Below, piece by piece: positions 1-57,272 of a DNA stretch of 64,000 nucleotides (the first letter of the stretch is position 1; each line of letters opens with the position of its first letter). The notes below the pieces were generated by a model. It was not told the origin of the DNA. It ran no database searches and was given only the letters and a program-made list of their open reading frames with translations. Source of the DNA: Asterias amurensis. Taxonomy: Eukaryota > Echinodermata > Asteroidea > Forcipulatida > Asteriidae. The position numbers and the translations under genes are program-made. Location of the stretch: contig NC_092667.1 of NCBI RefSeq assembly GCF_032118995.1, forward strand, positions 4,332,931 to 4,396,930. The letters are read 5' to 3'.

Positions 1-174
1 CAGATGTGTGCATAATGTTTTGTACATCATGTAGTATTGTTTTATTCACCATGTAATACATGTGTGTGCATGTTTGTGTGATTTGACTGCAAATCTCCAT
101 GTGAAATGAATGTGAGGTCAAAGGTACATCTGCTCTGGTATCTTGCTTAATTCAGGAGCGTTGAAGTGTGACAC

Positions 175-421
175 CTGGGCCCAATTTCATGGCTCTGCTT
201 ATCGTAAGCACAGTATCGGCGCTTACGGCAGCAGGGAATTCTGCGCTTACGGCAAGCGATTTTCACAGGTTAGCGGCGAATTTTGGCCTCTGCGCATGCG
301 TACTCCACGTTTCTAGGCATTCTACACTTACAAGGATAGCACAGAAAATCAGCGCATGCACGTAAGTGGGAATTATAAGCGCAGAATTCGGCGGTAAGCA
401 GAGCCATGAAATTGGGCCCAG
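175..421. mobile_element. Non-autonomous inverted-repeat element, family A (GGGCCCAATTTCAT ends)
   Basis: The 247-bp segment is bounded by perfect 27-bp inverted repeats (175-201 and 395-421), each starting CTGGGCCCAATTTCATGG. There is no coding capacity. It lies in a TM9SF4 intron. The terminal motif recurs many times in the window, which defines a family of MITE-like elements. Confidence 0.75.
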
Positions 422-489
422 ATGTTCAGGCTTGGTGGTAGTGACCAGCAACATTTATTTATCTGCAATTATCTGTTCAAATAAAAAGA

Positions 490-605
490 AAGAGGCTATA
501 CAGCTCGGTTGTTGGAGAACTGGCACATACATCCAAAGGTCACAGGCTCAAATCCCATTCTGGTCAAACTGTCTTTGTTCACTCAAAGTTAAAGTTTTAT
601 CTTTC
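490..605 (+). repeat. tRNA-derived SINE remnant
   Basis: An A-box-like CTCGGTTGTTGG and a B-box-like GGCTCAAATCCCATTC occur in the spacing and order of a tRNA gene, but the arms do not pair as a functional tRNA. The tail resembles other B-box-containing repeats of this window. Confidence 0.35.
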
Positions 606-754
606 AAGTGAATCTCTGATATGTTACGAAGTACTTGTTGTAGTTGCTTCCAGAACTGGTGAATGTTAATCAATTACAGAGATGGATTTTATGAATAGTG
701 TTCAGGAATTAATCAATCGCTAATCCTTTGGGTTTTTTCTGTCTTACCTGGCAG

Positions 755-3700
755 AGTGTTTGCAGGGTATTTCTCTGGGCGTCTTTATAAGACCATGAAA
801 GGCACTCAGTGGATTCAGTCAGCTCTACTGGTAAGTTAAGCCTCACCCCAATCCTCAATCCAAACCTTACCCCTCCACCAACCATGTGTTAAAATAGTGT
901 ACACCAAACAGCATTAACCCCATGCCTTAAAGGCACTGGACACCTTTGGTAATGCGCCATGTTTTTGACCGCGTGAGGGCGCTCTCAATCACTTCCGGGG
1001 GTATATTTATTCATACTCAAAACAGTTATTAAAGACTGGCACACATTACCACCACAGACATATCTAATCCATCATGGACAATAAGACTTTCAAAGGAGCC
1101 GTTATAATCCACCTCTAAAGCAACTTAAAACTATGGCGCAACAAAAGTGACAGAACGCCTATTCAAACTGTGCAGGACGAATGGCGTATACTCCCGAAAG
1201 TGATAAAAATACTATTGAGAGCACCATCACGTGGATTGTCAAAGACCATTGTTCTCACTTGGTGTATCCCAACATGTGCATACAATAACAATTTTGTGAA
1301 AATTTTGACTTGTTTGATCTTCGAAATGGCAAGAGAATAATGCTTTTTTGTGTCTGCAATTTCTTGTTTTGTCTACACAAATATTTTGATAACTTTGTTA
1401 ATGTGTAATTTTATTTGGTTTTTCCTTTCAAGACTGGTTTCCTGTATCCAGGTATTATATTTGCCACCACATTCCTGCTCAACTTCTTTATCTGGGGCAA
1501 GCATTCATCTGGTGCAGTGCCGTTCAGCACCATGATCGCATTAGTGTGCATGTGGAATGGGATCTCACTTCCATTGGTTGTGCTTGGACATTACTTTGGC
1601 TACAGGAAACAGGTAGGACGAGACAGTTTATACATCAGACCCGATACTTCAGGCCCTCTCTGGCCTCCATGCCCCCTTTAAAAACTTCAGTAGAAATTTA
1701 CAATTATCTTAGGGTAACCTTTACCTAGGAGGAAATGCCTTGGTGCCCTTGCCCTTTCAAAAATGAAGCATACAGGCATGATACAGTTACTCATTATAGA
1801 TCCCATTGCACTGGTTTCACATGCTTCTATCAGTCCATGGAGTGCCATTTTGGGAGTTTGAATGTGTCCGAATGAGAGTCTGAAAGATACTTTGTGCGTC
1901 TAACAGCACACGTGTTGCCTGAAATGACCACTGAGTAACATACTGTAACAGTAACAATATGGCCATTCTTTTGCTTTTTTCTCAACAAGTAGACAGTGTA
2001 ATCAACTGAAACTTTAGGAGGTGACTTTTATTCAATCTTTTTTGGTAACTTCCCCTGTTAATCAGCATTACGATGACAAAAACCATAACCTACCTTTAAG
2101 CCTATTCAGACCATCCTACTTTTGTTTCTTTCTTGAGCACTATGACCGTCAATCAATGGATACCGGTGCTTCACAAATGTTTCTTATTATCATCATTTGG
2201 GTCCTCTTTACTAATGTCTTCTTTGATTGGCTCACAGCCCTATGCCCATCCTGTAAGGACCAATCAGATACCTCGTCAAGTACCAGAGCAGGTTTGGTAC
2301 CTCAACCCATTGTTAAGGTATGGTAGTAACCTTCTTTCATCTCCCAATAACCTCCCTTTGTGGATTCCCAACGTGTCTATAGTCTTCCATTAACCCTGGC
2401 GTTTTTCTGTGTTATTTTAATGCCATACATTTCTAAGCTGTAAATTACTTCTTTTTGTTTTCAACTTATCAATAAAAACTCTTGAAACAGTGACTGCAAT
2501 CCTGGTACTACTGTAATTAAAATCAAGGGTTGTTGCTCTAAGGTTCTACCATAGACAACTTCACAAATACTCAGTAGGCAGTTATTGACCTTAGTGAAAA
2601 TTTGGCCCTTAACTAAACCACTAAACCAGCGTGCACCTCATTCCTTGGCTACTGCATGCACACTGAGTATTTGTGAAGTAGTTCCATAGAAAATGAAATC
2701 TGCCCCATTTTTGTTAACTTTATTCATGAACCATATAATAATTGTTTATCTTTTCCGTGTGTGAATTTCATTTCTTTAACTCATAAATAAAAGTGGTATT
2801 TTTATATACCCTGTTGAAACTCTGTGTTAAATATTAAACATCGTTTTCTCCGTTGCACATAATTTCAAACAAAGCATTTGCCTATTATTATTATTATTAT
2901 TGTGCTTAGTCTGTATTCTTAATGGATTATTTTTGCTTAACAGATAACAAAGGTGCAAAGTAGTAAATTAGTCTAATGCTCACCTCAGCAAACATTTGCA
3001 TAATGTCCTTCTTTTTTGGGACCTTAGTCAACCTAAGTCAACCTTAGTCTGAGGTTCTATATGAATTGGCGGCTACAGCTACAGCTACGCCTGGACCATT
3101 GTGTAGAATGGGACATCCTTAGCAACAGCCATAGACGTGGCTGTTGCCGCCAATTCAGATACGGTCTGACTCCCAAATGGTACCAAAATTTGTCAGGTGA
3201 CCTGGATCAGGTTGGTGGAAGTGATTATGTGCACCTGTTAATATACAAGTAGTTGCCTCTCACAAGCTTACGAAGTAGTAGATATCCCCCTTCTGAAGGA
3301 AAGGTGCAACGTTGCTTTTTGAGTCAATCTTTCTCTCTATATCTCTTGCTTTCGTAAAAAAACTCTGTGAAATCCTCTTCAAATAAATTATCAAATATGT
3401 TTGAGAAAAAAGGCTTTGGACTGCCTTGAAGAAAAAAAAAATTGGTGATGCAACTTGTTGCCAAAATTGTTTGGCAAATGGCAAAAACTATTTGCCAGAT
3501 TGCTAAAATTGTTTGCCAGAAAACAACAATCGTTCAAATAATTGCCATGATTTATTTGCCAGATAGCAAAAGCCATTCGTCAGAAAATGAAAATCGTATT
3601 GACAGATAACCCCAAAAAAATTCTTCCAAATATCAATAAACATTTGCCGGCTAGCAAAAATCGTTTAGTAGATGGATGGTTAAAATGTTCAACACCAACT

Positions 3701-6700
3701 GTATTGGTATCTAGAAGTTAACACAAACACTTTATGTTTTTGTTGCGTGAAAACCATGATATATGATGTCATCTTATGTCGATTTCTGAAATAAAATTCG
3801 TTGACTGCATTTTGAGAATTTAACTCTGATACTACTGATTTTGTCTGTTTTATAGTTTTATATAGAAAGCCATTGTTGTTCTACCTCACCCTTTTTTAAC
3901 ACATAATTGGGTTTCTTCCGTTGCTTAATAGCTTAACACTAACACCCCTTTCTTGTGTCGTTACAGCACCCTGATGGCTGGGATTCTGCCCTTTGGGGCC
4001 GTCTTCATTGAACTATTCTTCATTTTAACTGTAAGTGGTTTGTCAGTATTCCTAACCCAATCCCATTTATATCTTGTGATTGTTTATTCCGTCCCTCATG
4101 CAGTGCTCCTGCTGCAGGTATTCTGTCATTTGGGGCAGTGTTCATTGAACTTGTCTTCATCATGCATGTAAGTAAGATGAATTGCTTACTTCTCCAAGCT
4201 TTTCACAGAGAAAGAAGCCTTGTGTGTTAGGATATGGTCGTTTTAACCATGTTTTACTAATTGCTTTTAATAAAGAGGTTTTTTATGATTTTTAAACCTT
4301 CAAACCAGAGTAGTGTTGTTTCAAGACAATGATAAATCTTGGAGGTGGGTTCTCCTCAGCACACTGTAACTCTTATTCCCTTGGAACACAGCCCTGGGGA
4401 TGCGTGGAAATTTTTTACCCCACCATTTCCCCAGCGACTTTTCACAGAGTCTCTGCCTATTCCACGGGTTCTGGTTTTCGGGTTGCACGCTTCAAGAATA
4501 CCCCAGGGTTTAACCACTTACCACTACTCCGGAGTAGGCCTGGGCGAATTATTCGAATATCCGGTTAATGGCGAATAGGTTTTCCTATCCGTAACCGCGA
4601 ATGCCTTTTTTTTTCTAACCGGATATCCGCATAGGGCGCGAATAGCTATTTATAAACCGGATAGTTCTGTAATTACAACCAAGTAACCGGATATTCTTTA
4701 ATATCCGAATATCCGCGGACGTCAGGCGACAACTGATATGAATGTTTTGTCTGAATCCTTATGAAACTTCTATTAAGACAGCATAAAACAGCATAAACTA
4801 AGTATTTAACTATGCTCACCTCCGTGAAGAGTTAAAACAATGACATTTCTGACGTAATTAGTTCAAAGATTACAAAAGTTTTCCTTCACGTAGAGTCAAT
4901 CACGATCAAAAGAAAAAGCAAATCGCCATCTTTAAATTAGATCCGGTCATTTTTATGAATGAACCGAGTGACACTGTCTAAAACTAATATCAATCCGCCC
5001 ATAAGATCTCATTCACAAACGAACAGCGCCCTCTAGCGGCAAAATAAAATTATTTTTTATTTTTTATTTATTTAATAGCGCCCTCTAGCGGCGAAAAAAA
5101 ACTATTCGAATATCCGGTTAATTTCGGATAGTTGGCCGGCGGTATCCGAATAACAAAATTTCACTATTCGCCCAGCACTACTCCGGAGCAGGGATGGCTA
5201 TTCCACGGGTATGCCCATTTGACAGGGTAGATCAGGAGTAAAGGGATCCAAGTATGAAAAGGCTGGCTGTTATTCCGTGGGATTTGCCCCCTGGAATAGA
5301 GTAGTGCAAAAATGGCTTAAGATTAATGGAAGGGCTGCTTGGAGTTGCGACTGCCCAGCCCCTTGTAGTCACTTGTAGTTTGCAATTGTTGTTATCGCAG
5401 GTACATTAACCCTAACCAGCGTTGTTCCTTATACTAACAGTGGTCTGATGGCTCAATGCCAGTTAAGACACCTGAGGACCTGTCGGATTTCTCTTCAAGT
5501 TGTCAGGCTCGTTCAGTTAGAAAAGCATCCCTGTTTTGTTTAAAACACTGTGTAGTGAAAAAAGGCAAATAGACTAGTGAAATGACAAGCTAACTGGTCC
5601 TGCTGGCCAGTCACAACAAAAGTTAAAGGCAGTTCCCGCTAACCTTAAGCACCATTTTAAAATTATACCACGATGCATCTTGGTAAACCGAGTACAGTTA
5701 GAAAAAAAACAAGCTGCCAAGACATATTCCATGCTGTCCTTTACATGTAGCTGTTCCATGTCTTTTCGCGCCAATCATGTACATTGGGAATGCATTATTG
5801 GCTATTGTAAAGCACTTCTTGTTGCTTATCTAAGCAGTTTAACACAAATGCTTTATAAGGTTATACACAGATTGCACAAACAATGGTGGTAGGGTAGAAA
5901 TAAAACACAAGTTGTTCTTTTCCACATTGCAATTATTATATTGATGAAATTGTCTGCAGTACCTTTTGCTGACGACAGTGCTCAAGCTGTCATCTAATTA
6001 AAGGGTATGCTTTGTGATCTAATGTTTGAGTCATCTACCCTGTGAGAGTCTTGGGTTTCAATCCCACAGGGTTTCTTTCTTGGTAAACATCTACACTGCA
6101 GTGTACAAAATTATTACAACATAAAATAGTTGTGTTTGTTTTAATAACACACTTCTTGCTAGTTATTACAGTCTGGTTGGATTAACTAATATAGGCCAGT
6201 GAATGAGATTTGCGCCAACAGGCAATATAATTTTAGAAATAATCTCTGGTTAAAACCCCTCTCATGATGTGAATGGAAACTGAGAGCCCCGACACATTAA
6301 TGCCGGAGGGCGTTAAATCAATTCTGGTAAATTTTTCCTTGTTCATCACCAAATCTAATATTTAAGTTATTACTAAGATACAGAGAATATATATTTATTA
6401 ATAACAAAAGTTGACCCCTTGCAAATGTGCGCTTACCATTTCAATATTTCTGGGGTTCTGTGATAGGTTTGATAGGTATGTATTCATGGCGGCCTCCTCC
6501 TCCTTCCTTTTTTTTGAGAAACCCATTGCGCGTCTTGCAAGGGATCATACTTTAAAATAGATAATTATTCATTGCAGAGTCAAAGAATATTATTTTAAAG
6601 TTATCCATGCCCTGATATGTGGTAATCACTATCTCTGTGCTTTTTGATACTAAGTACTAACAAAGTTGCATTTCTCATTTTCAATATGAAACTAGTTGAA

Positions 6701-9007
6701 ACTGCTTGATTTTTTTGTGTGTTTTCTTTAATAAAAGGTCCGATGGAGCGTACTTATATTTATGTCAGCTTCATCAAAATTAAGTAGCTTTGCATATCAA
6801 ATAAAAGGATTTCCGAGGCTTAGCAAAAATATTTGAATCATCATCATGATATGTAGTGTTGATAATTCTTAAAATAATTGGTATCAGTTAGTTGATTTAA
6901 TCCTATAGTAATGTCGTGACAGATTTTTGATCTGTACAAATTTGTATAAAAATTATTACTACTATTAGTATTAGTTTGCTTTTGTTGAAAAGGAGGCTGA
7001 CAGTGTAGGCTTATATCTATTATGGTGACAAATTAGCTAATTTTGGGCATATGTTTTTTTTATAAATTTGAGTCTGTTTAATTTGTTTTTGTTTGGTTTG
7101 AAGGCTATATGGGAGAACCAGTTCTACTACCTGTTTGGTTTCCTCTTCGTTGTGTTCCTCATCCTAATTGTTTCGTGCGCCCAGATCTCCATCGTCATGG
7201 TCTACTTTCAGCTCTGTAGCGAGGTAATAGTCATAACGAGACATAAACGATACAGTCAACTCAAAAGCTTACCCCAGACGTTGACTCAAAACAATCACTC
7301 TCGAAAGTCCGCCATGCATGGGCAGTTTGGGACATGTAAATGGCTGATATTAATGTGAAAACATTCACCAGCCTTAAAGAAAATTCCATCTTATGCCGTA
7401 AACACAGACAAATACAACCTGTTTTGCAAACCTTGAATAAATATATAAAAACTTGTCCACTGGGCGAATTATATGTTGAGAATTTGCCTTTTCAATGCGT
7501 TTTCCCAAGCCTCGGCTTGAGCTCCACCTTGGCTACCTCATAAATTTTTGAGCAGTGTACAGATTTTTTGAGTTGGGCTGTTTTGCCATGGAAGGGCTGA
7601 GTCGTCGATGAGAAGGAGGTTAATTAGCTAGAAGACCATATAAATGGATTGCACATGATGTCATTGACCAGCATCTTTGATAAAATGTGCATTCATGAAA
7701 GGCTATCGTTGGCTGAGAGTTGTGCGCAGCGCGTACACGCTTGCACTTTTCCAATGTTTATCATGAAATATGGCGGTCAATGACGCTTTAAGCAATCCCA
7801 TTTATATTGAAGATTAATGTACTGATTGTTTGGTCACCTAGGATTACCACTGGTGGTGGCGGTCATTCCTTGTCTCTGGAGGCTCAGCATTCTACATTTT
7901 CGTCTACTCCGTTTTCTACTTTGTAACCAAGGTATGTCAATTTTATCTACTGAAACACTTTAAGATTAATTCATGTGTTTTGGCCAATAAGCCTTTTGAG
8001 ATATGCTGGACACTATAGGAGCACTGTTTGGTTTGGGTGTGTATAGAGAAATTTACCCAAACCTAATGGTGTCGTAGTATTGCGTCAACTAAATCTCAAA
8101 ATGGCTAATTAACTTCTGATTGCAATGATGTGATTTAACCGTTAAAGCGTCAGAATCCAGAAACAATTGTGGTGGTCTACGTCTTAATCAGACACTCATA
8201 ATGGCATTAAAAATTAAGACATCCAAATCTATACATCTATGAGATCCTGTCTGTTCAACCTGCCGTTGGTCGATGCCATTACATTATGCATTTCCAACAG
8301 TCTAATACGCCTCTCTTAATATTTATGCATGACGTCATTCTTTCCCAAAATGAGGCTATGGGCGCACGTCCGCCAATACTTTCAGTGGCTGCACCTTTGG
8401 CCTCGTTTTGGGTTAGAATTGTGACGTTCCTCATGCATAAATATTTAAAGAGGCGTATTGTGCTTTAGAAACACAATTGAAAAAAATGCGAGTTATTTGA
8501 AATCTGTAAATGTCAATGAGAAAGGAAGTTTCACTGACAGACAAAAATTGTGAACGGCAAGCAGGCCTGGAATTTCATCCTAGAAAGGGCAAGGCCATTT
8601 CCATTTTGCAAAGGGCACTTCCATTGGAAAATCTTAAAAGTCAATGGGACAATGGGAAACATTCAAAGGGGCACCAAGGCCAAGAACAGGAGCAACGGAG
8701 GCCATGGCCTGTGTGTAATTCAAGGCCTGGGTAGAAAAAGAGTTGCTTTTTGACTGAAAATTATTTTGTTTTGATAAACGAGAAAAGCATGTCTGAAGTG
8801 AACTAGTTACAAAATGTCGTAGGCTGATATTATTTCCTTTATTTGTGATTTGTACAGCTTGAGATAACTCAATTTGTGCCAGCTCTACTCTACTTCGGCT
8901 ACACCTTCATGATGGTGTTAACCTTCTGGATCATCACCGGCACTATGGGATTCTTCGCAGCTTACTGGTTCATAGTTAAAATCTACGGAGCTGTTAAGAT
9001 CGATTGA
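755..9007 (+). CDS. TM9SF4: Transmembrane 9 superfamily member 4, 3' part (N-terminal part lies upstream of the window)
   Basis: Coding exons: 755-830, 1433-1612, 2238-2317, 3967-4030 (or alternative 4104-4167), 7104-7223, 7842-7931, 8858-9007 (TGA at 9005-9007). Every junction is GT-AG and the phases match; joined, they give about 253 residues. This is the C-terminal multi-helix part of a nonaspanin, a Golgi/endosomal membrane protein implicated in sorting of membrane cargo, lysosomal pH and phagocytosis. Family landmarks are visible: [61 protein letters not shown], the DYHWWWRSF segment and the C-terminal KIYGAVKID. The ending resembles the KxD-type Golgi retention signal described for TM9SF proteins. 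The wording [11 protein letters not shown] and AIWENQF points to TM9SF4 rather than TM9SF2 or TM9SF1. The signal peptide, luminal domain and first helices (roughly 390 residues) are not in the window. The duplicated exon is described separately. Confidence 0.95.
927..1349. mobile_element. Degraded copy of inverted-repeat family B
   Basis: It begins with TTAAAGGCACTGGACACC, the family B end, and at 1237-1290 has the internal family B segment (TCAAAGACCATTGTTCTC, TGGTGTATCCCAACATG). The middle is not recognisably family B and the second terminus is missing. Located in the intron after TM9SF4 exon 755-830. Confidence 0.5.
3420..3675. repeat. Degenerate tandem motif array (TTTGCCAGAT-GCAAAA)
   Basis: The motif TTGCCAGAT..GCAAAA..GTTTGCCAG recurs several times at irregular spacing of about 25-40 bp with many substitutions. 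It lies in the TM9SF4 intron before exon 4a. Function unknown. Confidence 0.4.
3967..4030 (+). other. TM9SF4: TM9SF4 exon 4a, canonical copy of a duplicated 64-bp exon
   Basis: This 64-bp exon encodes the tail of a split serine codon and 21 residues ([20 protein letters not shown] then T). This is the very conserved transmembrane segment of TM9SF proteins. It is preceded by a TTACAG acceptor and followed by a consensus GTAAGT donor. It enters with phase 2 from exon 3 (codon AG|C, Ser) and leaves on a codon boundary to exon 5 (AIWENQF). A near copy with the same length and phases lies 73 bp downstream. Confidence 0.9.
4104..4167 (+). other. TM9SF4: TM9SF4 exon 4b, alternative copy of the duplicated exon
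   Basis: A second 64-bp exon with its own ATGCAG acceptor and GTAAGT donor. It also completes a serine codon (AG|T) and encodes 21 residues ([20 protein letters not shown] then H). Fourteen of 21 residues equal exon 4a. Several of the conserved codons differ only at silent positions (for example GCC/GCA, GTC/GTG, CTA/CTT, ATT/ATC), so the protein core has been conserved since the duplication. If both copies are spliced in, the frame shifts and a TGA appears at 4146-4148. If both are skipped the frame also breaks. Only one copy can be used per productive mRNA. I infer mutually exclusive splicing; an inactive duplicate is the alternative. Confidence 0.75.
4535..5180. mobile_element. Non-autonomous hAT-like DNA transposon with 8-bp target duplication
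   Basis: The 646-bp element has ends TAGGCCTGGGCGAAT and, inverted, TAGTGCTGGGCGAATAG. It is flanked on both sides by the identical octamer CTCCGGAG (4527-4534 and 5181-5188). Eight-bp duplications with TAG/CAG-type GGGCGAA termini are typical of hAT elements. The interior is rich in the motif AATATCCGGTTA in both orientations and has no transposase ORF. It sits in the large TM9SF4 intron between exons 4b and 5. Confidence 0.85.
6025..6085 (+). repeat. tRNA-derived SINE fragment
   Basis: A B-box-like GGGTTTCAATCCCACAGGG is preceded at tRNA-like distance by TCATCTACCCTGTGAGAG. Too short and unpaired to be a tRNA gene. Confidence 0.3.
8304..8459. mobile_element. Small fold-back element (AATACGCCTCT ends)
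   Basis: The 156-bp segment is nearly palindromic. Left arm: AATACGCCTCTCTTAATATT and on through TATGCATGA and CCCAAAATGAGGC. The right arm repeats these in inverse order with a few differences and one small insertion. Located in the last TM9SF4 intron. Confidence 0.7.
8563..8730. mobile_element. Inverted-repeat family K element (GGCCTGGAATTTCAT ends)
   Basis: It begins AGGCCTGGAATTTCATCC and ends with AATTCAAGGCCTGG, an imperfect inverted terminal repeat. The interior (TTTTGCAAAGGGCACTTCC, GGGGCACCAAGGCCAAGA) recurs at 45514-45675 and, in parts, near 24790, 28265, 43670 and 54240. Confidence 0.6.
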
Positions 9008-9523
9008 CGAGGAGGAGAGCTCCTACTAAATTGAACACACTTTCTCACCTTCTCAATTATAACTCTGTGGCCAGCTCTGTAAGGTTTCCTGTCAACAGCA
9101 AGAGTCATAGCACTGCTACTTAAAAAGGAACCAGACTTTTGTTAAAACCTCTGCTTCATTTTTGATGGCATGAAAGAAAACAGGTTGGTCTTAGCTCTGC
9201 TCTGTTCAAAGAGTAGTGAACATATTTCAAAGAACTTACAAGAAACTTTCCATGAGATTTACTCTGACTACATTTTTTTATTTACCAATTAGTTAAAGTG
9301 GTACAAGGTTATGTAGATGAGTTGTGAAGTCGCGTGATCCTTTTCGCTAAACAACCTCTGCGTTTTAAAAAAAAAAATTTAGTATCCTTTTAAAGAGGTT
9401 CTGGTTTTGGGGCGTTTTTGTTTGGCTTTTTACAGTTAGAACACTTGGAAGAAACTATTTGGCGGTCACTCTTCTTCCAAGTAGATTTACCTCACTGGTG
9501 TAATAGCAAAAGTACAGGCTAGA

Positions 9524-9529
9524 AATAAA
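9524..9529 (+). terminator. Candidate poly(A) signal of TM9SF4
   Basis: AATAAA 517 bp after the stop codon. Other candidates exist further downstream (for example near 10472 and 11643), so the true end is uncertain. Confidence 0.35.
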
Positions 9530-10714
9530 ATGTCAGAAGGATGTGCCTGCTACCCCTCCCCCTACCCCACCCCCCCCCCCTAACCCCCAACTTCCCCAAT
9601 CCGACAGATCGTCCACTGAGGAGAAGAGAAATGTGTTGTCTTGGTTGACAGTGTAATTAGCAAACACATTCTTTCATGTATGTAAATAGTTACTAAACTC
9701 TGTATTTTGAGAGGAGAAACAAAATGGCTACCTTCAAATGCTGTGTGGTGTTTAAAGGTTTATTGTATTATATATGATAGAGTTCCTAGGTCTTGCGGGA
9801 TGGTCTATAAATATTAAATTCAACATTGCTTATGTTTCGGATGTAGTTTTCATTGTTATTTTTTATACAATTAATCAATTTGTAGATTAGCTGGAAGGTG
9901 TTTTGTTAATTTAAACTATAATTTTATCAGGATGTAAGACTTTTGTTGACGCTAGGTGGCAGCAGACTCGCCAGGTAAACTCATTGTTTTTGGACATGTG
10001 CGCGTGATCAGAAATAGGTAAATAACAGACTTTAATCTGGTATGTCTGATGTCCTCTGGCGTTCTAAAGTAGACAGCCACTACCTGTAACCACAGTTTGT
10101 TTTTAATTTTAGACTTGTCTGCTTATTACTCGTGCGGCACTTTGCTTATAATGTGATGAAATAGTTCCTACGCTTACAACTTCAATCTTCACCAACACTT
10201 TTTACATGAAGAAAAAAAAAACAAGCCGTGTAAGTTTATATTTCAATTTTGTGGGTGATCCCTGTACAACCGCTTCCCATGTTGTATTGTAAACTTGGGT
10301 GTGGTCTCTGGCTAAACACTGCAGTTACAGGTTGACTGGCTTCTGACTTGCAAACCAAACAAAGATATTGACAAAAATAAGGAGACTGCCAACATTAGAG
10401 CTAGAAAGCTCAGTTGGTAGGTCCCATTTTCAGATCCTGTTCTAGTCAATTTTTCTTTGTTCTTCCCCAAAATAAAGCAAATGTAAAGAGAAAAACTAAG
10501 CCAACTTTTTGTATTAAACTACCAAGTTAAATCTCATACAATCTGTATGAAGTGTATACTAGCTATTGGTGCAAACTGCAAAGAAATACTTCTGATAAAG
10601 AAGATAAATATGTTATTGAAAAGAGCTACTTTTTATTTGGTTCTGATCCTAACCTTTGTCAGAAATATACACAAATTGCAAACTCTCTTTTCAGTTGACT
10701 GCTTCTGGTACACC

Positions 10715-10909
10715 TAGGACCAATTTCATAGAACTGCCTAAGCACAAAAAAGTAGCTAAGCACAACAAAATGATGCTTACCAGAATAAGGTTACCAGCCA
10801 AAATGCCATGTCACATGTACAATTTGTAACCTGTATCCATAGTTTTGCTTAGCAGAAAATTGTTAAGCAATATTTTTTGCTTAAGCAGCTCAATGAAATT
10901 AGGCCCTGT
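10715..10909. mobile_element. Inverted-repeat family A element
   Basis: The left end GGACCAATTTCATAGAACTG is mirrored by CAGCTCAATGAAATTAGGCC at the right end. The interior has the typical TAAGCACAAAAAAGTAGC and TGTCACATGTACAATTTG segments shared with copies at 40060 and 50493. Confidence 0.65.
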
Positions 10910-11784
10910 ATACATGTATATGCGTGTTTGTTGTCATTTAGCCTTCAAGAATATGACCGGGTCAAAATGTCAGACCACTGACTATTTGTTGCAATTATAC
11001 AACAGGTCAGTTTCGTTTGGTAAGCAGTTTGCAACAGCTGATTCTATTTCTCACAATTTACAAACATTAACAAATATATATTCAGTGTGAAATTTCTATT
11101 GTAATTAATTAGATCAACTAAGAGGCTTTCAAGCTCCAAGTCCTATCGTTTGGATATTTTTGTTTTATGATCAAATCGTAAAACATATTTTTAAGAAAAA
11201 GGCATCTTAAACAGAAACAAGTCTCTGAGCTGCTTAGCACAGAAAATGGTGCTCAGCCGAGAAAGTTTACCAGCTGAAACCCATACAATTGGAATATTTT
11301 TTGACTGGTAACCTTCTTGATTACTTTTATCAGTGCAAATGTAGAGAGTTTGGTTCTAGCTTGGGGTAGCTGATGTAGCAATTTAGGCAGAAGGGCAGAC
11401 TAAAAGCCTGGTTCAAACTTCCTGCAAATGCGAATCAAATTTGTGTGTTCTTGTTTGGTGGTTTTATTTTTGCTGCAATATTCATTTTGTCACAAATTTT
11501 CTTTAGCACTACTTTGAGTTGTAGTTTATTTTCTTCAAATTAGTATAAAGAAAAGATTGGTTTACAATGTGATGTCAAATTAAATGTTAATTTCTCCTTT
11601 ATTATAGTGATTCTGAAACATAAAGTGTTTAGTTTTTTATTAAAATAAATATTCAGTTACTTAAACAGTGGAAAATTCGGTTTGTAGTGATGAGGGAAAT
11701 AAAAACACTTATAATTCATTGTATTTATTATGATGTTTTCCAAGGATCATTATTTTGATGTTGCTTAGCAGCAACTGTGTTCAG

Positions 11785-12171
11785 TTAAAGGCAGTGGACA
11801 CTATTGGTAATTACTCAAAATAATTATTAGCATAAAGCCTTTCATGGTGACGAGTAATGGGGAAAGGTTGATGGTATAAAACATTGTGATAAACGGCTCC
11901 CTCTGAAGTGCCATAGTTTTCGAGAAAGAATTATTTTTCCACGAATTTGATTTCGAGACCTCAGATTTAGAACTTGAGGTCTCGAAATCAACCATCTAAA
12001 CGCACACAACTCCGTGTGACAAGGGTGTTTTCATCTTTCATTATTATCTCGCAACTTTGATGACCGATTGAGCTCAAATTTTCACCGGTTTGTTATTTGA
12101 TGCATATGTTGAGATACACCAACTGTGATGGCTAGTCTTTGACAATTACCAGTAGTGTCCACTGCCTTTAA
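11785..12171. mobile_element. Inverted-repeat family B element, complete
   Basis: 387 bp. It starts TTAAAGGCAGTGGACACTAT and ends with the inverse, TAGTGTCCACTGCCTTTAA. In the centre a palindrome built on GATTTCGAGACCTCA forms a second inverted repeat. No coding capacity. Copies in the opposite orientation are at 43930 and 51521. Confidence 0.8.
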
Positions 12172-13577: not shown

Positions 13578-16500
13578 TCAGGCTGGAAGACTCGAAGCAT
13601 GTTGGACTTTTCGCTGCTTCATCACCAGTTGAAACTCCCTGATCGTTCTGATTGGATCAGAGTAATTAGGTTCCAAATCGGGCAACTGATTCCCAGGTGG
13701 GCTTTCTAATGTGAAATGCTTCAGGATTCCTCCTAGGTACAAGAACAGACCCATTGTGGCTAGCTGCTTGCCAAGGCAAACTCGGGCCCCAACTGAGAAT
13801 GGCATAAAGTGCTTCGGAATGAATACTTTGCCATTGTCATCCAGAAAATGCTCTGTTGGAAACAATTTAAAATATATATATGTCATCGTTAATTACCCTT
13901 AAGACTTTGTTATTTCAATTATGGCTTTTATTTAACCAAGTGTTTCATTTTAAATACTTTTCTTACTTCATACTATTTTAAACGGCCAAGAACAACAATA
14001 CCGGGTGCGTTCGTTTAGCTTCCCTGGGTCGACCCCGGTGTGTGTGTTTTTTTTTTTTTCCTTCTACGACGAACGTGTGCAGATAATTACCCACGTTCGT
14101 CCTGGAAAAGAACCGCCACACACCGGGGTCGACCCAGGGAAGCTAAACGAACGCACCCAATGTAAAAAATACAACAAGCACGTTCTGATACCGACAACAA
14201 CAAAAACGTGTACATATTCTCAACACTTATAACTTTTATCTTCAACTATGATACCTGCTTATGTTGTTGTGTTGTCATTTAGCCTTTTAGAAAGACTCTG
14301 CCAGGGTCGAAAAGTCAGGCCATTAACTACTTTTTGCATAAATTATACAACGTTCCTTTGGGTGGTAAAAAACTGGTAATCAGTTTGCAGCAGCTTATTA
14401 TAATTGATCTTCAAGTATGCTACCGTTGTGTGTATTTTGTAAAATATTAAACTTTCTACCTGGTCTGAAGCTGTTTGGTTCCGCCCAGTTCTTTGGATCA
14501 TGATGCACCCACCACAGGTTGCATAACACCGTTGTACCCTTTGGGATATCATAGTTTCTCAGCCTACAAAGAGGAAAATGCAATCATCGATGTCGATAAG
14601 TGATAGCAAAAACAATAACATTTTGGCAATTATTGTGTTTCATATAATAATAATCTGTTTTAACGAAATAAACTTATGCAAACAATGGTGCACTGGAAGG
14701 GAAGAATGGTGACTTTATTTCAACATGGAGGTAGAATTACTTTCTTCTTTTTTTTAAAAACAAATTAGCATACTTTGTGTCACACGTGGTAACGTGTGGA
14801 CCATTCAGTGAGGAGAATGAGCTGTGACGTAATGTCTCCAAAACTGTAGCCTCGAGATACGGCAGCCTGGGGCGGTCATTCCAAGTCGGAAATCCACCAG
14901 TCATGTTGTTGTCAAGTTCATCTTGCAGCCGATGTTGGACCTAAATAAAACAAAACAATTTAACAAATAAAGATATTTTTGTTTAATAACAAATCAGTTG
15001 TAATCTATAGATTGAAGACCGAACAGTTTCAGGTCTGTTTGGACAGACGTCACATACGAAATGTTGTATTTCTAAACAAGTCTTTAACTTCTGGTCTCAA
15101 AGACGCGAAGATATGCATTTGTAATACTAAAAGAGGATTCTGACAGTTACAATAATGTTTCTGTCGATTTCAACACTTTTGTCATAAACACTTGAAATGA
15201 CTTACAGTATTACTACCCCATGTTAATCTGACGCTAAGCATTAATGAAAAACCTTCAAAACTCCTTAGGAGTATGCAGCACCAGGAATCACCATTTGGGC
15301 CTCAGATGTTTAACCTCTTTTCGTCATGGGTTCACCACAATATATGATGTCTACATCACGACTTTAATGTTATTGTAATCAGGTGAAGTTTGCGGTAGCA
15401 CAAGGTGTAGATCTATTTTGAGAAGTGTTGTTTCTAAGACCGACAACTGATGTATGGTTGACTACGCAAAGTTTCGATCAGTATGCTCTGATCGTCCTCC
15501 TTGTTATCATACCTACCTTTGGGTAATGAACCAGGTACGCCAGTGCCCATCTTAGAGTCTGGAAAGTCGACTCAAATCCCCCAGCAAAGATCTCCCACAT
15601 GGACATAATCACATGATCCTCAGTCATCGTGACGTCGTCACTGGGATGATTTTCATTGAGAAACTTCATCGATTTCAGAAATGCATCTGTGATGTCCCGG
15701 ATGTTGTCGGGATGAAACGTCTCTAGGTGTTCTCTGTACTGGGCTTGGAGGATGGCATCACGTGTTGTGACGATTTCTTGGATTGTGCGCATGCGTTTTG
15801 ATGGAAATATCTGCAAGTAGAATGCAAAGAAAAACAAGGTTTTATACAGGGGATTGAAACTGGCCACATATTTAAAATATCAAGATCCATTATCTTAAAG
15901 ATACATGAGTAATTACACGTACAAAGTATTTTTTTTTAAATGAGTCACCTATGGACCTAGCCCTCTCGATGGCAACCTCGTTCAAAATGGGTCAAACTTC
16001 AGTGTCGTTTCGTTGTATAGGCCTAGTACACGTCTAACGTATTTCTCTTCTTCAACAACGTCATTGATAAATGGAAATTGTACATTTTATTATGTTAGGA
16101 GACATGATGACCGGTACTAAACTTAATAAAATTTGCCTCAACCACCATTTGTAATGATGGTAAAGACAAGCTTTGCCCCTGCTCCCACCTCACCTGTAAC
16201 TAAAGCCATGCTATTACCTAACCCCCCCCCCCCCAACCACCACCCATTACTGTCTAATTACATTCCTAACATTGTTAGAGCATCTGGCCAGAATGGCTGG
16301 TCAGTTCCTTTTCAAGGATGAGCTTGAAAGTACAGTGACACCAAAGTACATCGAAGTCCATCCTAGGGTGACCTCACGGTGCGTGGTCCAGTGGCCCAAT
16401 TTAGGATGAGCTGAGGACCATTGTTGACCACAAGAGGTACGCAGACAAAGCCGAAAATCTCTCTTAAGAAATGGGTGTTAGGGATTTTAGCTCAGACAAC

Positions 16501-19441
16501 AATGGGACAATAGACCACCTTTATTTAATTGGAAGTGGGGAGAGAAAACAAGGCCTTGCTTTGGCTCAAGGACCCCACTGAGGGGGTTGCCGCCCTTTTG
16601 GAAAGTACTTTGCCTTTTCGTTGGGGAACACTCACCCCTCCCCGAAATATCGTGAACAATTTTTAACAAACAGATATCACTGATAAACAAAACTACAAAC
16701 AAATACATTGTACAACTTTAAACAATATGTAAAAACACAAACAAGTATAAACTGACCCACACAATCCCATAATACAATTACATATATTGAAACCAAACAA
16801 ACAAAAGCCCCCCCCCCCAACCTGTTTTAAATTGTGAAATTGGTAAAAAGAAAACTGTAAAAAAAAATAGACCATTTATAAGTTTTACACAATCTGGAAG
16901 GTACACCAAATCTGGAAAGTTTATCTTTCGGCAAACTGGTAAACCATAAGTCCTTTATCCATGGCTTTCTTTGCCGAAGTTCCAGCCCCAAATCTCAACA
17001 TTTTAAGAAATTTCTCTGAGACTTTGAAGAATGGACGGATCAGTGTGCGCGGCTCATTTGTTAAGGAGACCAGAAATTTTTAACGGCGTCAAAAATCAAT
17101 CGTTATCTCATAATAGACTCTCATCATTCCCCCTGATGCAGTTTCGATAATTAGAACTTCGATTCTTTATTAAAACGTGAAGAAGACCTTGAGAAAATCT
17201 CGAAGTATTTATCCTCTGTAATTGCCTCTTAGGCTTAGTATGAGACAGGGAGAGCATGTAAATAAGAATCCCTGGAGACGGTTATAGGGGCCTAATGAGA
17301 AAGTCTATTAAATTTAAATTGGGAGAACTGATCTCATTTACAGTAAGATCGATTGTCCCGCTGTGGACTCACAATTGTAACGAGGAAGGGGAACTGTGAG
17401 AAGATATTTACCCGTGTGCCCAAAAATATTTTTTATTTTATGCCCCCCCCCCTCTCCTTTTTGTGTGTGTGTGGGGGGGGGGGGATGGGGGGAGGGGTTG
17501 GTTGTAATGTTTTGAGGAGTTTTACCCTATAATTGACGCACACTACCTTAAAAACAATATTACCTTCAAGAACGGAAACAAGTCCAAGGGGTGCCCTGGT
17601 TTGAATATCTCATTCAATTTGTGGTTGGCGAAGACGAAGGCTTCCATTTCGGGATCGTTCGGGCTGTATCGGCAGCCGAATGTCAGGTTGCACACGGTGT
17701 TTATGAGTGCCTCGGTCAGGATTCGGCTCGGTTCGAAAGGGCTGCCGAAGTTGAGGGTTATGTTGGAGACAAGATGCGAGACCTCCTTGAGTATGGTGGT
17801 CTCGGCGATAGAGCGGGAACCCGGCGAGCTGAAGATCATATAGAAGTGATGGAGAAGTTGATTATTGATTATCAAAAATTTACATCATTATGATAACAGG
17901 CTTACTCAATTATTCAAGCATGCATTTGTTTTCTTTTTTTCGGAGTAGCCTTCAATGCTTATAACATTACAGTAAGTTTAATTTATTCACCACTTTTGTT
18001 CTACATAGGCCTATGGTCTACTGTATGGCTTACCAAAAAATAAATAGTGCTTCTGCAATTAGGGTAATTTTATTTTATTTTAAGGTTTTTATTCAGAATT
18101 TTGTGTCAAAGTGTAAATCATTGTCAATTATTAGCTTTTGGTTCAGACTCATGTTTGGTTTTAAATAAAATTATTTAAAAAAAAATATTTTCCTTTTTAC
18201 CATACAGTGTTTGAATGTTGAATGACTGTCTTCAAATTATCGCTGACAAATCAGTAATCTTTGTGAACTCTGTGAAAGTTCAATCAAAACATGCTCCCGT
18301 TTGTAAAATAAAAAGACATCTTCGTGCTTTCACAGAGAAGTTCTTCATAATATTGTCAGCTTTAAGTCAATATTATTTTATCAATGGCATGAACAAATGA
18401 GAATTATTATGATACAATAATACTAAATGTACATAAACTCTAAGCCGAGGGATTTAGAAAAGGGTTAGGCGTCTGGTTGAATTTAAAAAGTCCGGAATGC
18501 AAGGCTGCTCCTCAGAATGTTGTTTTCCATCTTTCAGATAACCCGTGATCTCGTTTGGTTCTAAACATACCGATACATGTTTTCTGTTATCAACTAAATT
18601 TATCTAAAAGAATGTTCTGTGTGTTGTTAGTGCATGGAGGTATAAAAACACACTCCTCTATGAATAGTGGAAGTGCCGAAGTTCACAAAAGGGAGTGAAT
18701 TAAGCCAGTGTTTCCCTGTGGCACTATTAAAGGCCAACGCCCGTCCCTGCCCTCGGATGCCCACCCCCTTCACCATTTTAAATCTGGACTCATTGTAGCT
18801 TTTGGCGAATTACTTAATTTTAACTATTGTTAAAATTAGTGACACGTTTACAATGTACATATCTGTTTACCTCCACTTCAATTTTATCGGATAAAATAGT
18901 AAAATGACACAAAGAGGGGGGGGGAATGGGTTCTGTATAAATAATCAACTGTTTTTTTAAAATATTTAAGTGAAAGAGCAAAATACCTGGTGGTAGATGG
19001 TCCTTGCTTGAGGCTCAGGCGTAATGCCGATGCAGCACTCTTTCTGTGTTCCATCCATGCCGGACTGTAGTCCGAGAAAGCTATTCCACAATTCTTCCGC
19101 GTTAGCAGACTGACAGAGAACATGTACGGCCGACCGGCGAAGTCCACGGCCTGCCGAACGAAGGCCTCACGGATCGCTTCGGAGCTACCGAGGACAACGA
19201 ACTTCTTACCGCAGACCGTAAGGCCTAAGATGTCCCCGTGTTCCTCGGAGAGTTTCTGAAGCACGGTGTAGATTGGCTCTCTGCAACCGAGGAACACGGA
19301 CATGTTACCGAGGAGAGGAATGCCGCGTGGGCACGGCGGTGGGTTCTTCCGGCGCCCGGTGCCGTCTTCTGCACGGCAGCATTGTGACAGGAAACGAAAA
19401 AAGAGAAAAGTGACAACGAAAAGCAATATTTCCGTTACCAT
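13578..19441 (-). CDS. Microsomal cytochrome P450, CYP2 clan (CYP1/CYP17-like), complete, 519 aa
   Basis: Exons in transcript order: 19441-18987, 17828-17564, 15810-15517, 14940-14774, 14563-14460, 13852-13578. They sum to 1560 bp with consistent phases. The start ATG (19441-19439) opens a hydrophobic ER anchor (residues 3-20), followed by basic residues and a proline-rich hinge (NPPPCPRGIPLLGN, about 33-46). Other P450 landmarks are the C-helix WMEHR (W129, R133), the I-helix AGGFEST (316-322), the K-helix ETLR (E373, R376), the FRPEHF motif (426-431) and the haem loop FSVGARVCLG with ligand Cys454. It is therefore a haem monooxygenase of the ER membrane, using electrons from P450 reductase. 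Oddity: the I-helix alcohol normally held by the first Thr of the D/E-T-T motif is Ser321. The motif LPYLEAxVLE and the form of the I-helix recall CYP1 and CYP17, but subfamily and substrate cannot be assigned by eye. It converges with TM9SF4. Confidence 0.93.
14003..14158. mobile_element. Short element with about 38-bp near-perfect terminal inverted repeats (GGGTGCGTTCGTTTAG)
   Basis: It begins GGGTGCGTTCGTTTAGCTTC and runs through CCTGGGTCGACCCCGGTGTG; the right end is the exact inverse ending ACGAACGCACCC. The loop (about 80 bp) contains a T-run and a smaller inverted repeat (ACGACGAACGTG, CCACGTTCGTCC). The element lies in the last P450 intron. No clear target duplication could be read. 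Confidence 0.8.
16224..16235. repeat. Poly-C tract
   Basis: A run of about ten C in a P450 intron; further C or G runs occur near 16808-16818, 17443-17453 and 17473-17484 in the same intron. Confidence 0.6.
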
Positions 19442-21235
19442 GGTTAGCACAGATTATGTTCTTTTATAGGCCTACCACTATCACACTGTTTTATTTGGTA
19501 CCGTTGAGCTCAAAGTTGCAGCATGCAGCAATGCCGAATTTTGGCACCGTCACTCGTTGGTGCCTTACAACTTTTCGTTTTAGCGACACACTACCAGCAG
19601 AAGCCCGTTAAAAGGTTGCTTCCCAATTAAACATAACAGAACAATGACCAGTTTCTTGTCAACAGATCTTTCTGTTAGCATAATATTGATTATCCTCAGG
19701 AGTGACAGAAGTCGTTTGGTTCATTCTTAGGAATTTGGCTTGTTTGTCAACTGAACTGGCAATCATTGAACCATAATTATCTTAGCAACATCTCTTTGAA
19801 TGGTGGAGAGTACACTCCGTATTGGGATGGGGGAGATGGGGGGGGGGGTACATTACATTCCATTCCCAAGCGCCTTTGTCGTTGTAGTTTTTTAGCACCT
19901 GGGCAACAAAAACCACCTTCACACATTTCCCCTAATTGTAAACTTGCAACCTGATTGGTCAAACTTTCTGCACATGTGACCCCACGTGTCATCTCATCTT
20001 TATGACTGCGAAACCCCAAATCAGTTATTTCAGGGATTGAAGTCGATCTTATTCATCAAGTGGAACAAAGAGAGATGGTTCAGCATAAAGACTTTTTGGG
20101 ATCTTCTCATTGGCTGAAGGGTCTTTTAGATGCTATTCGAAGTCAAACTACTGAAAGTACAATGAACTCGCCAGTGTCACAAATTATCTAAAACCTTGAA
20201 CACTTTGCACGCACACTCGGGTACCAACCTGTGCATGTGGCCTCAGGATAAAGTTCCCCTTTGGAGGGAAAAGAGGCGCGAAGACAAAAGGCAAAAGCTG
20301 TGTTATGATAACAAGAGTTTGCCCATGGTTTGACACTCTGGCACCCGCTGCGAAAATATTTGTAACTCATCTTCCCAAACTAACAATGTTTTTTTTTATT
20401 TGAATAGCAGAGATTTATTATGATGGTGGAGAATTGACTTTTAAGAATGTGATGTTTATTTGCGTGTTCTTAACAATGCAAGAGTGACTCGAAACAACTG
20501 TTATGTGCATACCATACCATCGCTTGATAATAACAAACAAGCAACTGATGCATTGAGTTGATACTTGTTACCCCCAAACCCCCTCATTTTACTTATTTGG
20601 GAGCCCCCCACATGAACAGAAAGGTAAAGTATGCAGAATGGCCTCATGAAATTTAAATCACAGTAATCTTTATCTTCAGTCAGTGTCAAAATACTGCAAA
20701 GAAAATTTGATGTATATTTCTCTTTTCAAACACTTTCGTTGTGTATTTAGGATCTACTTAACCTCACACTCCGTCTCAGAACCAATTAAGAGCCGTACAC
20801 ATTTTCTTCGAATAGCTATAGGGTGAAAGGACAATAATAAAAACATACTTATTTGCACTTTCCAAAGTCTCACAAGGATGCAAAAGTACCTGCGACCCTT
20901 TAGAAGAAAGGACCAAGGCCTTATCAGACGAGCCCCTGATAAAAGTTCTGGTCCGAAGCCCTCAGTCATAATACCAGTCCCGTCCCTAATGAGTTCGGTA
21001 AACCATGAGTGAAATGAAAAGCCACCCACAGTGGGCTATCTTGTCCTTCAGTGAAAGTACAGTGAACTCAAGCTGATGTAATACGTGTGAACTAATGACT
21101 AGTAATGGATGGACGTCAGGGCATGATTAATGCTGTTTAGGCCGTGTTTGAAATAGTTATCCTTCAAATCATTGAGGTTCATTGTAAACACCTTTACTTT
21201 ACCTTTACCTTTTAAGTACCATTCTGGTGTCGCAT

Positions 21236-56300: not shown

Positions 56301-56855
56301 TGCTTAATATCAGAAGTTCATTAGGGGTTCCCAAGGTCCTTTCCCACCGCACCCAGTTAGCATACACCGTTATAATCATGGATGTTTTTTTCTACCTCCA
56401 TTGTATGGAGAAATAGATCTTGTTTTATAGATCATCTCCAAGAGTCCATATATAGCAGAGTTTTAAAAAAAAATCTGTGCATTTATAATAATATTTGTAT
56501 GAACATATAAAAGAATGGGTCTCTTCATAGTTTGAAGGGAAGGTTCCGCATAATGCTGGTAGTGCCACTACCAGCATAAATATGCGGAAACTTTCTACAA
56601 TTATACACTTGAACTCCGTACCACTAACGAGTAACGGGTACGGAGTTCAAGTACAGTCATTTTACGACCATGTAGGAATCATCCAACGTTAATGAACATA
56701 CCAACGTTAACCTGTTCATGGCTTCCGTTCGCAGGCTTGTAACGATGTACGGTGTTCCCTGTAATGTCAACAAAGTAGAAGGTCTGGCTGGGTAAGTCCC
56801 AGTACGGGCCTTCCAGTAAACTACCGCAGTTTTTCACCACAGCTGTGACTGACAT
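53381..56855 (-). CDS. RGN: Regucalcin / SMP30 (gluconolactonase family), complete, 298 aa
   Basis: Exons in transcript order: 56855-56702, 55790-55608, 55297-55082, 54560-54429, 53592-53381 (TAG at 53383-53381). The sum is 897 bp, phases agree, and human regucalcin is 299 residues. It is a six-bladed beta-propeller lactonase that needs a divalent metal and hydrolyses sugar lactones such as gluconolactone; it also has reported roles in calcium handling. Metal-site and active-site residues are all present: E15 in LLEGPYWD, N100 and D101 in NRFNDGKCD, N151 in DISNGIAWS and D201 in FPDGMCID. The exon 4 donor (G|GTTTGT) is weak but required by frame and homology. The start at 56855 is the first ATG that gives the usual N-terminus; upstream in the same frame there is only a TTG-started extension. 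The gene converges with FAM91A1. Confidence 0.95.
53769..53830. repeat. Near-perfect palindrome with arms of about 28 bp
   Basis: Left arm AATAACCTAGAGAATATGG followed by TAAGCTTAGA; the right arm is its inverse with one 2-bp difference; the loop is about 5 bp. Lies in the last regucalcin intron. Confidence 0.8.
53970..54120 (+). repeat. tRNA-derived SINE
   Basis: A-box region TAGTGGTTAAGAAATCTGCT and B-box GGGTTTGAATCCCACAG lie at tRNA spacing. Similar A-box region at 62213-62240. In the regucalcin intron after exon 4. Confidence 0.5.
54636..54930 (+). repeat. tRNA-derived SINE copy 2
   Basis: B-box GTGTGGGTTCGAGTCCTG at 54677-54694, then a conserved body with TAAATCCATAGGTCCCATG and ACATAAAAGAACCCAGTA, a core seen in several invertebrate SINEs. 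Related to the copy at 37375. In a regucalcin intron. Confidence 0.6.
56530..56655. repeat. Two adjacent hairpins next to regucalcin exon 1
   Basis: The first pairs TTCCGCATAATGCTGGTAGTG with CACTACCAGCATAAATATGC. The second pairs CTTGAACTCCGTACC with GGTACGGAGTTCAAG exactly. Both lie in the first regucalcin intron just after the exon 1 donor. Confidence 0.7.
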
Positions 56856-57272
56856 TATGTCGAATTTCTTCCCTAGTTTATTCAGAAGCAAACGTGATAA
56901 GTTGAAGAACAAAGAAAGCTGTCATTGATTAACTCTTTACAAGTATATAAAGTTCGTTCCGCTGAAGGTGATAGCGGAACGAATCGACCATGGACTCTGG
57001 AGGAGGGGAGGTGGTAGTTTGTTGATAATAATCAATCCCAAACGTAAACAAAACCGCGCCTCTCACAGCGCGCCCTCTCTTGAGCTATCGCGGCTGATTT
57101 ATGGCTGATTACGCTCACGTCCGTCACGCCTAGCCTGTGCGGTGTAGGATGTGTGTATGCGCGCGCAGGCAACGTGGTGGAAATTTCGAAAAATGAAGTT
57201 GTCCTCAACAAGCTAATCACACACTGCTTCTAGAAAAATCACCGAAATTGCAGTAATTATGTTACAAATTAA
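56856..57272. promoter_or_regulatory. Upstream region of regucalcin, possible divergent promoter and first exon of a plus-strand transcript
   Basis: The stretch upstream of the regucalcin ATG contains a short hairpin (about 56949-56981, arms built on GTTCGTTCCGCT and AGCGGAACGAAT) and then GC-richer sequence around 57050-57180. On the plus strand a consensus donor GTAAGT begins at 57273, after AATTAACAT. Splice-bounded candidate exons follow downstream on the same strand, so this segment could also supply the first exon of a divergent transcript. Inference from position and splice motifs only. Confidence 0.3.

What the first reader, a model, noticed from the sequence alone, without database searches (positions are those of the whole stretch)
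3967..4167. Tandem 64-bp exon pair in TM9SF4 that looks mutually exclusive
Two adjacent exons of identical length and phase, each with its own acceptor and consensus GTAAGT donor, encode alternative versions of the most conserved transmembrane segment of a TM9SF protein ([12 protein letters not shown] versus [12 protein letters not shown]; 14 of 21 residues equal). Since 64 is not a multiple of three, using both gives a stop at 4146-4148 and using neither breaks the frame, so exactly one copy must be chosen. The separating intron is only 73 bp. Silent differences at six conserved codons show selection on the protein. A switch replacing the conserved Pro by Ser and the terminal Thr by His could alter helix kinking or cargo choice. 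I know of no such pair described for TM9SF4.
Basis: partly seen in the sequence, partly recalled or inferred. Interest (0 to 1): 0.78.

Follow-up and report, generated by a model that had tools for sequence, protein, structure and literature searches.

The report
Either-or exon pair in TM9SF4
A gene for a membrane-protein sorting receptor carries two versions of one membrane-spanning segment side by side, laid out so that a working message should hold only one; this is a known kind of splicing switch in a gene where we found none described, and no RNA evidence was available.

Summary
Two 64-nt exons (4a 3967-4030; 4b 4104-4167) lie 73 nt apart in a TM9SF4-type EMP70 gene, each with an AG acceptor and GTAAGT donor; 43 of 64 nt and 14 of 21 residues are equal. 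Either exon alone keeps the frame to the final KID stop; both or neither gives an early stop. 4b still reads as EMP70 (128.6 bits against 135.8). A model with 4b neutral since duplication gives the combined observation in 0.1-0.4% of runs, though 4b was noticed because it is intact. Added here: the top branch-point motif of the 73-nt intron is CCTAAC, A at 4055, 25 nt from the 4a donor, under the ~50-nt steric limit and like OGDH exons 4a/4b (PMC7969005, passages). Best reading: a mutually exclusive pair, probably enforced by branch-point crowding, with frame disruption as backup. No RNA and no second species could be examined, and the genome search for spliced copies did not complete (16 tries). 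A new member of a known kind in a gene where our searches found none described. The cargo-switch idea is speculative.

The parts
2238..2317 (+). constitutive exon upstream of the pair (ends in ...NPLL plus AG of the split Ser codon)
   Evidence: open frame and AG/GT borders
3936..3942 (+). candidate branch adenines for the 4a acceptor (A at 3936 in CTTAAC, 30 nt, and A at 3942 in ACTAAC, 24 nt from the acceptor)
   Evidence: motif scoring; a slightly higher-scoring motif lies 67 nt away, outside the AG-free tract
3967..4030 (+). exon 4a, 64 nt, encodes (S)[21 protein letters not shown]; family-like version
   Evidence: two paralogs also have LPFG
4031..4103 (+). 73-nt intervening intron with 4a donor GTAAGT and 4b acceptor CAG; no other AG in the 57 nt up to the acceptor's end
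4051..4056 (+). CCTAAC, top-scoring branch-point motif of this intron; branch A 4055, 25 nt from the 4a donor and 48 nt from the 4b acceptor
   Evidence: shuffles
4104..4167 (+). exon 4b, 64 nt, encodes (S)[21 protein letters not shown]; alternative version
4146..4148 (+). TGA met in frame if 4a and 4b are joined
7104..7223 (+). constitutive exon downstream of the pair (AIWENQFYY...)

Best explanation
Exons 4a and 4b of this TM9SF4-type gene are a tandemly duplicated, mutually exclusive exon pair. Each encodes one version of the same conserved membrane segment. The likely splicing mechanism: the branch point that serves the 4b acceptor (A4055) lies only 25 nt from the 4a donor, too close for U1 and U2 snRNPs to assemble on the same short intron, so 4a is not joined to 4b and exon 3 must choose one of them. 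Slips (both or neither) shift the frame and should be removed by nonsense-mediated decay. Shown here: exon structure, frame logic, motif layout and family fit of both peptides. Inferred: use of both exons, use of A4055, decay of mis-spliced RNA, and any difference in protein function. The confidence given is for the mutually exclusive pair as such; about 0.5 is for the steric step as well, and rival 3 is the rest of it.
For: Exon borders and frame consequences. 4b is an intact EMP70 peptide: 128.6 bits against 135.8 for 4a over the same 88 residues. Ka 0.25 against Ks 1.37 over 21 codons; 0.06 against 1.03 over 16 central codons, a subset chosen after seeing the data. Null with 4a changing only silently and 4b neutral since duplication: at most 7 replacements and no stop in 2.1-6.2% of runs; with intact AG and GT and no indel as well, 0.1-0.4% (assumed indel:substitution ratios 0.1 and 0.05). 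The introns beside the two exons share no clear similarity (12 of 40 upstream; 18 of 40 downstream including the shared GTAAGT) while the exons keep 43 of 64. CCTAAC at +25 scores 7.7; next are +49 (6.4), +56 and +39 (6.0). A best motif this strong at <50 nt from the donor arises in 0.87% of 20,000 mononucleotide shuffles. Same layout as OGDH 4a/4b (branch points 25-41 nt from the donor in humans; PMC7969005, abstract and passages). A donor-branch point distance <50 marks potential steric interference in 57 (9%) of human clusters (PMC5740500, passages).
Against: No transcript evidence of any kind. No second species: scans of viral and prokaryote contigs gave no relative, as expected, and no collection here holds animals. 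4b was picked because it is intact, so the null probabilities are optimistic, and a recent loss of function is not excluded. The whole-exon replacement test alone is weak (2-6%). 4b has Ser where 4a and the two paralogs with a recognised segment have Pro, the costliest of the seven single changes (135.8 to 132.2 bits). The branch-point weights are hand-set, not trained on this animal, and not very selective: motifs of 7.0 or more occur within 150 nt of the acceptor in 5 of the 6 other introns too. A branch point at +56, or at +49 on the limit, would allow an ordinary short intron. An AG-free tract this long arises in 19% of shuffles. No unusual RNA fold (z -1.24; 17 of 200 shuffles fold as well).
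Confidence: 0.78

Rival explanations
1. 4b is a decaying or silent duplicate exon: 4a is used constitutively and 4b is a relic that happens to keep its frame and splice sites.
For: 4b looks like the derived copy: at 4 of 7 differing sites (3, 8, 17, 20) 4a and not 4b equals the TM9SF2-like paralog, 4b equals neither of two paralogs at any of the 7, and over 21 residues 4a shares 13 and 12 with them, 4b 9 and 9. It breaks the LPFG motif and scores 7 bits lower. The whole-exon constraint test alone is only 2-6%.
Against: Joint neutral null 0.1-0.4%; few replacements in the central 16 codons (0-0.04% of neutral runs, a post hoc subset); both splice sites intact with a GTAAGT donor.
Confidence: 0.14
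2. 4b is a poison exon: it is mainly included together with 4a to give an early stop and lower TM9SF4 levels.
For: 4a+4b gives TGA at 4146-4148.
Against: A poison exon needs no protein-level constraint, yet 4b encodes a family-like segment in the compatible frame; the short intron with a branch motif at +25 should hinder 4a-4b joining.
Confidence: 0.05
3. Both exons are used one at a time, but exclusion is set by regulators, by RNA pairing or by frame selection alone, not by branch-point crowding (this shares the mutually exclusive reading of the best explanation, so the odds overlap).
For: In the human catalogue 377 clusters (60%) have frame-incompatible exons and only 57 (9%) potential steric interference (PMC5740500, passages); weaker branch motifs exist at +49 and +56.
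Against: The strongest motif is at +25 and no AG interrupts the tract from it to the acceptor; the fold of 3967-4187 is ordinary. Long-range pairing across the flanking introns was not analysed.
Confidence: 0.3

Closest known systems
OGDH mutually exclusive exons 4a/4b with distant branch points near the 5' splice site (PMC7969005; abstract and passages seen)
   Same: Tandem exon pair; branch motif 25 nt from the upstream donor (OGDH: human 25-41, frog 30, sunfish 46); AG-free tract before the downstream acceptor.
   Different: Unrelated gene and protein; branch point only predicted here; no long uridine tract in the 73-nt intron (sequence); no RNA data.
Mutually exclusive exons with branch-point proximity, alpha-tropomyosin and alpha-actinin classes (recalled, not read)
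   Same: Steric incompatibility of donor and branch point as the switch (recalled).
   Different: In alpha-tropomyosin the branch point lies far from the acceptor in a longer intron (recalled).
TM9SF4/Phg1A, TM9 (EMP70, PF02990) family
   Same: Family match over 252 and 88 residues with either exon. In Dictyostelium and human cells Phg1A and TM9SF4 associate with glycine-rich transmembrane domains and favour their surface localisation (PMC4510845, abstract and passages).
   Different: At the two paralog loci where the segment was recognised (L010, L012) only one copy was seen; at L011 the segment was not recognised. No alternative version found in the papers searched.

Membership tests
Mutually exclusive exon (MXE) pair | neighbouring internal exons, similar sequence and length, same reading frame, no in-frame stop | tested here: met
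   64/64 nt, same phase, 14 of 21 residues equal, both frames open
Mutually exclusive exon (MXE) pair | joint inclusion or joint skipping gives a non-functional transcript | tested here: met
   stop at 4146-4148 if both, stop in exon 5 if neither. Common but not compulsory in MXEs (60% of human clusters)
Mutually exclusive exon (MXE) pair | transcripts contain one or the other exon, not both | not testable with these tools
   no RNA reads available; the genome search for spliced copies did not complete
Steric (distant branch point) MXE subclass | branch point less than about 50 nt from the upstream donor | tested here: inconclusive
   best motif at +25, next at +49, +56 and +39 by a hand-set score; branch point use not measured
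U2/U12 incompatibility MXE subclass | mixed minor and major splice sites | tested here: not met
   both donors GTAAGT, both acceptors CAG with a pyrimidine-rich tract; judged by eye, no U12 model was run
EMP70 / TM9SF4 | EMP70 profile match above cut-off | tested here: met
   316.5 bits with 4a, 308.9 with 4b, cut-off 27
EMP70 / TM9SF4 | orthology to TM9SF4 rather than TM9SF1-3 | tested here: inconclusive
   EMP70 matches at four loci of the genome (C12, C17, C20, C21); the other three resemble TM9SF2, 1 and 3 by motifs I recall; no tree built

The most novel reading that the evidence does not exclude
TM9SF4, an intramembrane receptor that recognises cargo by the cargo's transmembrane helix, has in this animal a splice switch in one of its own conserved membrane segments. 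Version 4b loses the Pro of GILPFG, gains a Pro six residues earlier, and gains two small-xxx-small pairs (AxxxG and AxxxS), so the two isoforms could pick different cargo; the switch is enforced by the kind of branch-point crowding shown for OGDH.
Probability: 0.2. Interest if true: 0.62.

Novelty: new member of a known kind. Interest (0 to 1): 0.42.

Why it matters
If both exons are used, one gene makes two forms of a sorting receptor that differ only in one membrane segment. That would be a natural swap experiment for the question of which part of TM9 proteins reads glycine-rich transmembrane cargo. It would also add a further case of exclusion by a branch point set close to the upstream donor, probably outside the vertebrates. 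As a splicing pattern it is well known.

Tried and rejected
Third exon copy: none in window 1-12000 by sliding BLOSUM scan (the best 8 places per source were listed). Same duplication in paralogs: only one copy seen at L010 (TM9SF2-like) and L012 (TM9SF3-like); at L011 (TM9SF1-like) the segment itself was not recognised, so no statement is made there. RNA hairpin over the pair: ordinary. Rfam: no family in the window at gathering scores. Solved structures: none matched the 252-residue query at E <= 0.001. Relatives in viral and prokaryote contigs: 34 and 353 stretches matched a pattern, none was confirmed by tblastn. U12 incompatibility: rejected by eye from the splice sites. Structure prediction was not attempted: the spliced protein is not readable letter for letter from the window. 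Papers: TM9SF4 with 'mutually exclusive exon', 0; TM9SF with 'mutually exclusive splic', 0; TM9SF4 with 'starfish', 0; TM9SF4 with alternative splicing and exon, 9 listed, titles and abstract starts seen only, none of which names this exon pair there; sea star with mutually exclusive and exons, 2 listed, neither on TM9SF by title; sea urchin with mutually exclusive exons and exon duplication, 3 listed, none on TM9SF by title. Listings also seen: 20 of 26; 12 of 15. Passages seen only: PMC10625585, PMC7969005, PMC5740500, PMC11090083, PMC4510845, PMC9889089 (nothing used). No paper was read whole.

Full report
What was checked. The window begins inside a gene on the + strand whose exons 755-830, 1433-1612, 2238-2317, (3967-4030 or 4104-4167), 7104-7223, 7842-7931 and 8858-9007 join to one open frame ending in ...[13 protein letters not shown] (in one search three of my borders were off by one). 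Pfam EMP70 is matched with 316.5 bits with 4a and 308.9 bits with 4b. The assembly has EMP70 matches at four loci: C20 (this gene, with further matches upstream of the window), C12, C17 and C21. C12, C21 and C17 resemble TM9SF2, TM9SF3 and TM9SF1 by motifs I recall (alignments), which leaves TM9SF4 for C20; no tree was built.

The pair. Exons 4a and 4b are both 64 nt, share 43 of 64 bases, and encode 21 residues each after a split Ser codon: [21 protein letters not shown] and [21 protein letters not shown]. Seven residues differ; six codons differ silently. 4a only or 4b only keeps the frame; both stop at TGA 4146-4148; neither stops in exon 5. The two exons score 103 in the sliding scan and the next place in window 1-12000 scores 23.

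Is 4b functional? Ka 0.25 and Ks 1.37 over 21 codons (about 16 silent sites, so Ks is rough); 0.06 and 1.03 over 16 central codons, a subset chosen after looking. A simple simulation from 4a to 20 differences gives 7 or fewer replacements in 0.17-0.59% of runs, but that null is too easy because 4a itself is constrained. With 4a allowed only silent change and 4b neutral, 2.1-6.2% of runs (kappa 1, 2, 4) have at most 7 replacements and no stop; the central 16 codons show at most 2 replacements and no stop in 0-0.04%. Adding an intact AG and GT and no indel lowers the whole-exon figure to 0.42% (indel:substitution 0.05) or 0.13% (0.1), both at kappa 2; these ratios are assumptions. The exon was noticed because it is intact, so these figures overstate the case. 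At 4 of the 7 differing positions (3, 8, 17, 20) 4a and not 4b equals the TM9SF2-like paralog, and 4b equals neither the TM9SF2-like nor the TM9SF3-like paralog at any of the seven; this suggests that 4b is the derived version. Against Pfam EMP70, over 88 residues, 4a scores 135.8 and 4b 128.6; changing 4a one residue at a time gives 135.8 (T1A), 133.9 (L2P), 134.7 (M3A), 132.2 (P8S), 134.7 (F17V), 136.5 (L20M) and 135.4 (T21H). So the Pro-to-Ser change is the costliest, but 4b remains a good family member.

How the choice may be enforced. The 73-nt intron between the exons has a GTAAGT donor, a CAG acceptor and no other AG in the 57 nt up to the acceptor's end. With a hand-set yUnAy score, its best branch motif is CCTAAC with A at 4055: intron position 25, 48 nt before the acceptor (score 7.7); next are +49 (6.4), +56 and +39 (6.0). 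In the six other introns listed (to exons 2, 3, 4a, 5, 6, 7), the best listed motif inside the AG-free tract lies 16-43 nt from the acceptor. The score is not very selective: 5 of these 6 introns have a motif of 7.0 or more within 150 nt, some outside the AG-free tract; exon 4a itself holds one of 7.4 (A at 4028), which lies beyond the last AG. In 20,000 mononucleotide shuffles of the intron body, a best motif of this score at under 50 nt from the donor occurs in 0.87%; an AG-free tract this long in 19%. In OGDH, exon 4a/4b exclusion is enforced by branch points 25-41 nt from the upstream donor in humans, below a proposed steric threshold of about 50 nt (PMC7969005, abstract and passages); a catalogue of human mutually exclusive exons counts potential steric interference in 57 clusters (9%) and frame-incompatible exons in 377 (60%) (PMC5740500, passages). 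This gene shows both features. No unusual fold was found over 3967-4187 (z -1.24, 17 of 200 shuffles fold as well).

Consequence for the protein. TM9SF4 and Phg1A associate with glycine-rich transmembrane domains and help them reach the surface, and the authors suggest that GxxG/GxxxG motifs in TM9 helices, notably 4 and 9, could make the contact (PMC4510845, abstract and passages); I did not determine which helix exon 4 encodes. 4b keeps [11 protein letters not shown], loses the Pro at position 8, gains one at position 2 and gains two small-xxx-small pairs. Mean hydropathy falls slightly, 2.01 to 1.77. That this alters cargo choice is my inference and untested.

What could not be done. No animal collection and no RNA are held here; scans of viral and prokaryote contigs found no relative. 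The search of the window's own assembly for spliced copies did not complete in 16 tries. Species: the assembly has 491,506,623 bases in 23 contigs, close to but not shown equal to the 491.53 Mb, 22-chromosome Asterias amurensis assembly (PMC10625585, passages); a second assembly of that species has 482,994,179 bases (PMC11090083, passages) and does not fit. Contigs C20 and C21 (15.20 and 15.17 Mb) would fit below the first assembly's 19th chromosome of 15.77 Mb if contigs are ordered by size. This is a lead only; the contig-length check did not complete in 6 tries.

Verdict. A well-formed candidate mutually exclusive exon pair, probably real (0.78), with a specific and testable exclusion mechanism (about 0.5 for that step included); a new member of a known kind. 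Interest is moderate: the gene is new for this pattern in the papers searched, but usage and conservation are unproven.

Noticed in passing
171-425: Short element with 34-nt terminal inverted repeats (94% complementary) 187 nt apart, upstream of the first exon of the gene held in the window; looks like a small non-autonomous transposon.
   Followed up: no
4524-5191: Element of about 670 nt with 26-nt inverted ends (88% complementary) and internal inverted AATATCCGGTTA-type repeats in the intron after 4b.
   Followed up: no
4104-4117: 4b holds an internal acceptor-like TGCTGCAG ending 14 nt inside the exon; its use would shift the frame (sequence).
   Followed up: no
13581-19453 (-): Cytochrome P450 gene in several pieces on the minus strand (4 of 4 pieces scanned match PF00067; in all 9 of the 10 frames that I picked matched a family).
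   Followed up: partly
39460-47830 (+): Exons of a FAM91 gene (2 of 2 pieces scanned match PF14648).
   Followed up: partly
54370-56921 (-): SMP-30/gluconolactonase-like gene (3 of 3 pieces scanned match PF08450).
   Followed up: partly
38987-39243: Two 126-nt tandem units, 98% alike, with GGACTAGTCC-like palindromes, shortly before a FAM91 exon.
   Followed up: no
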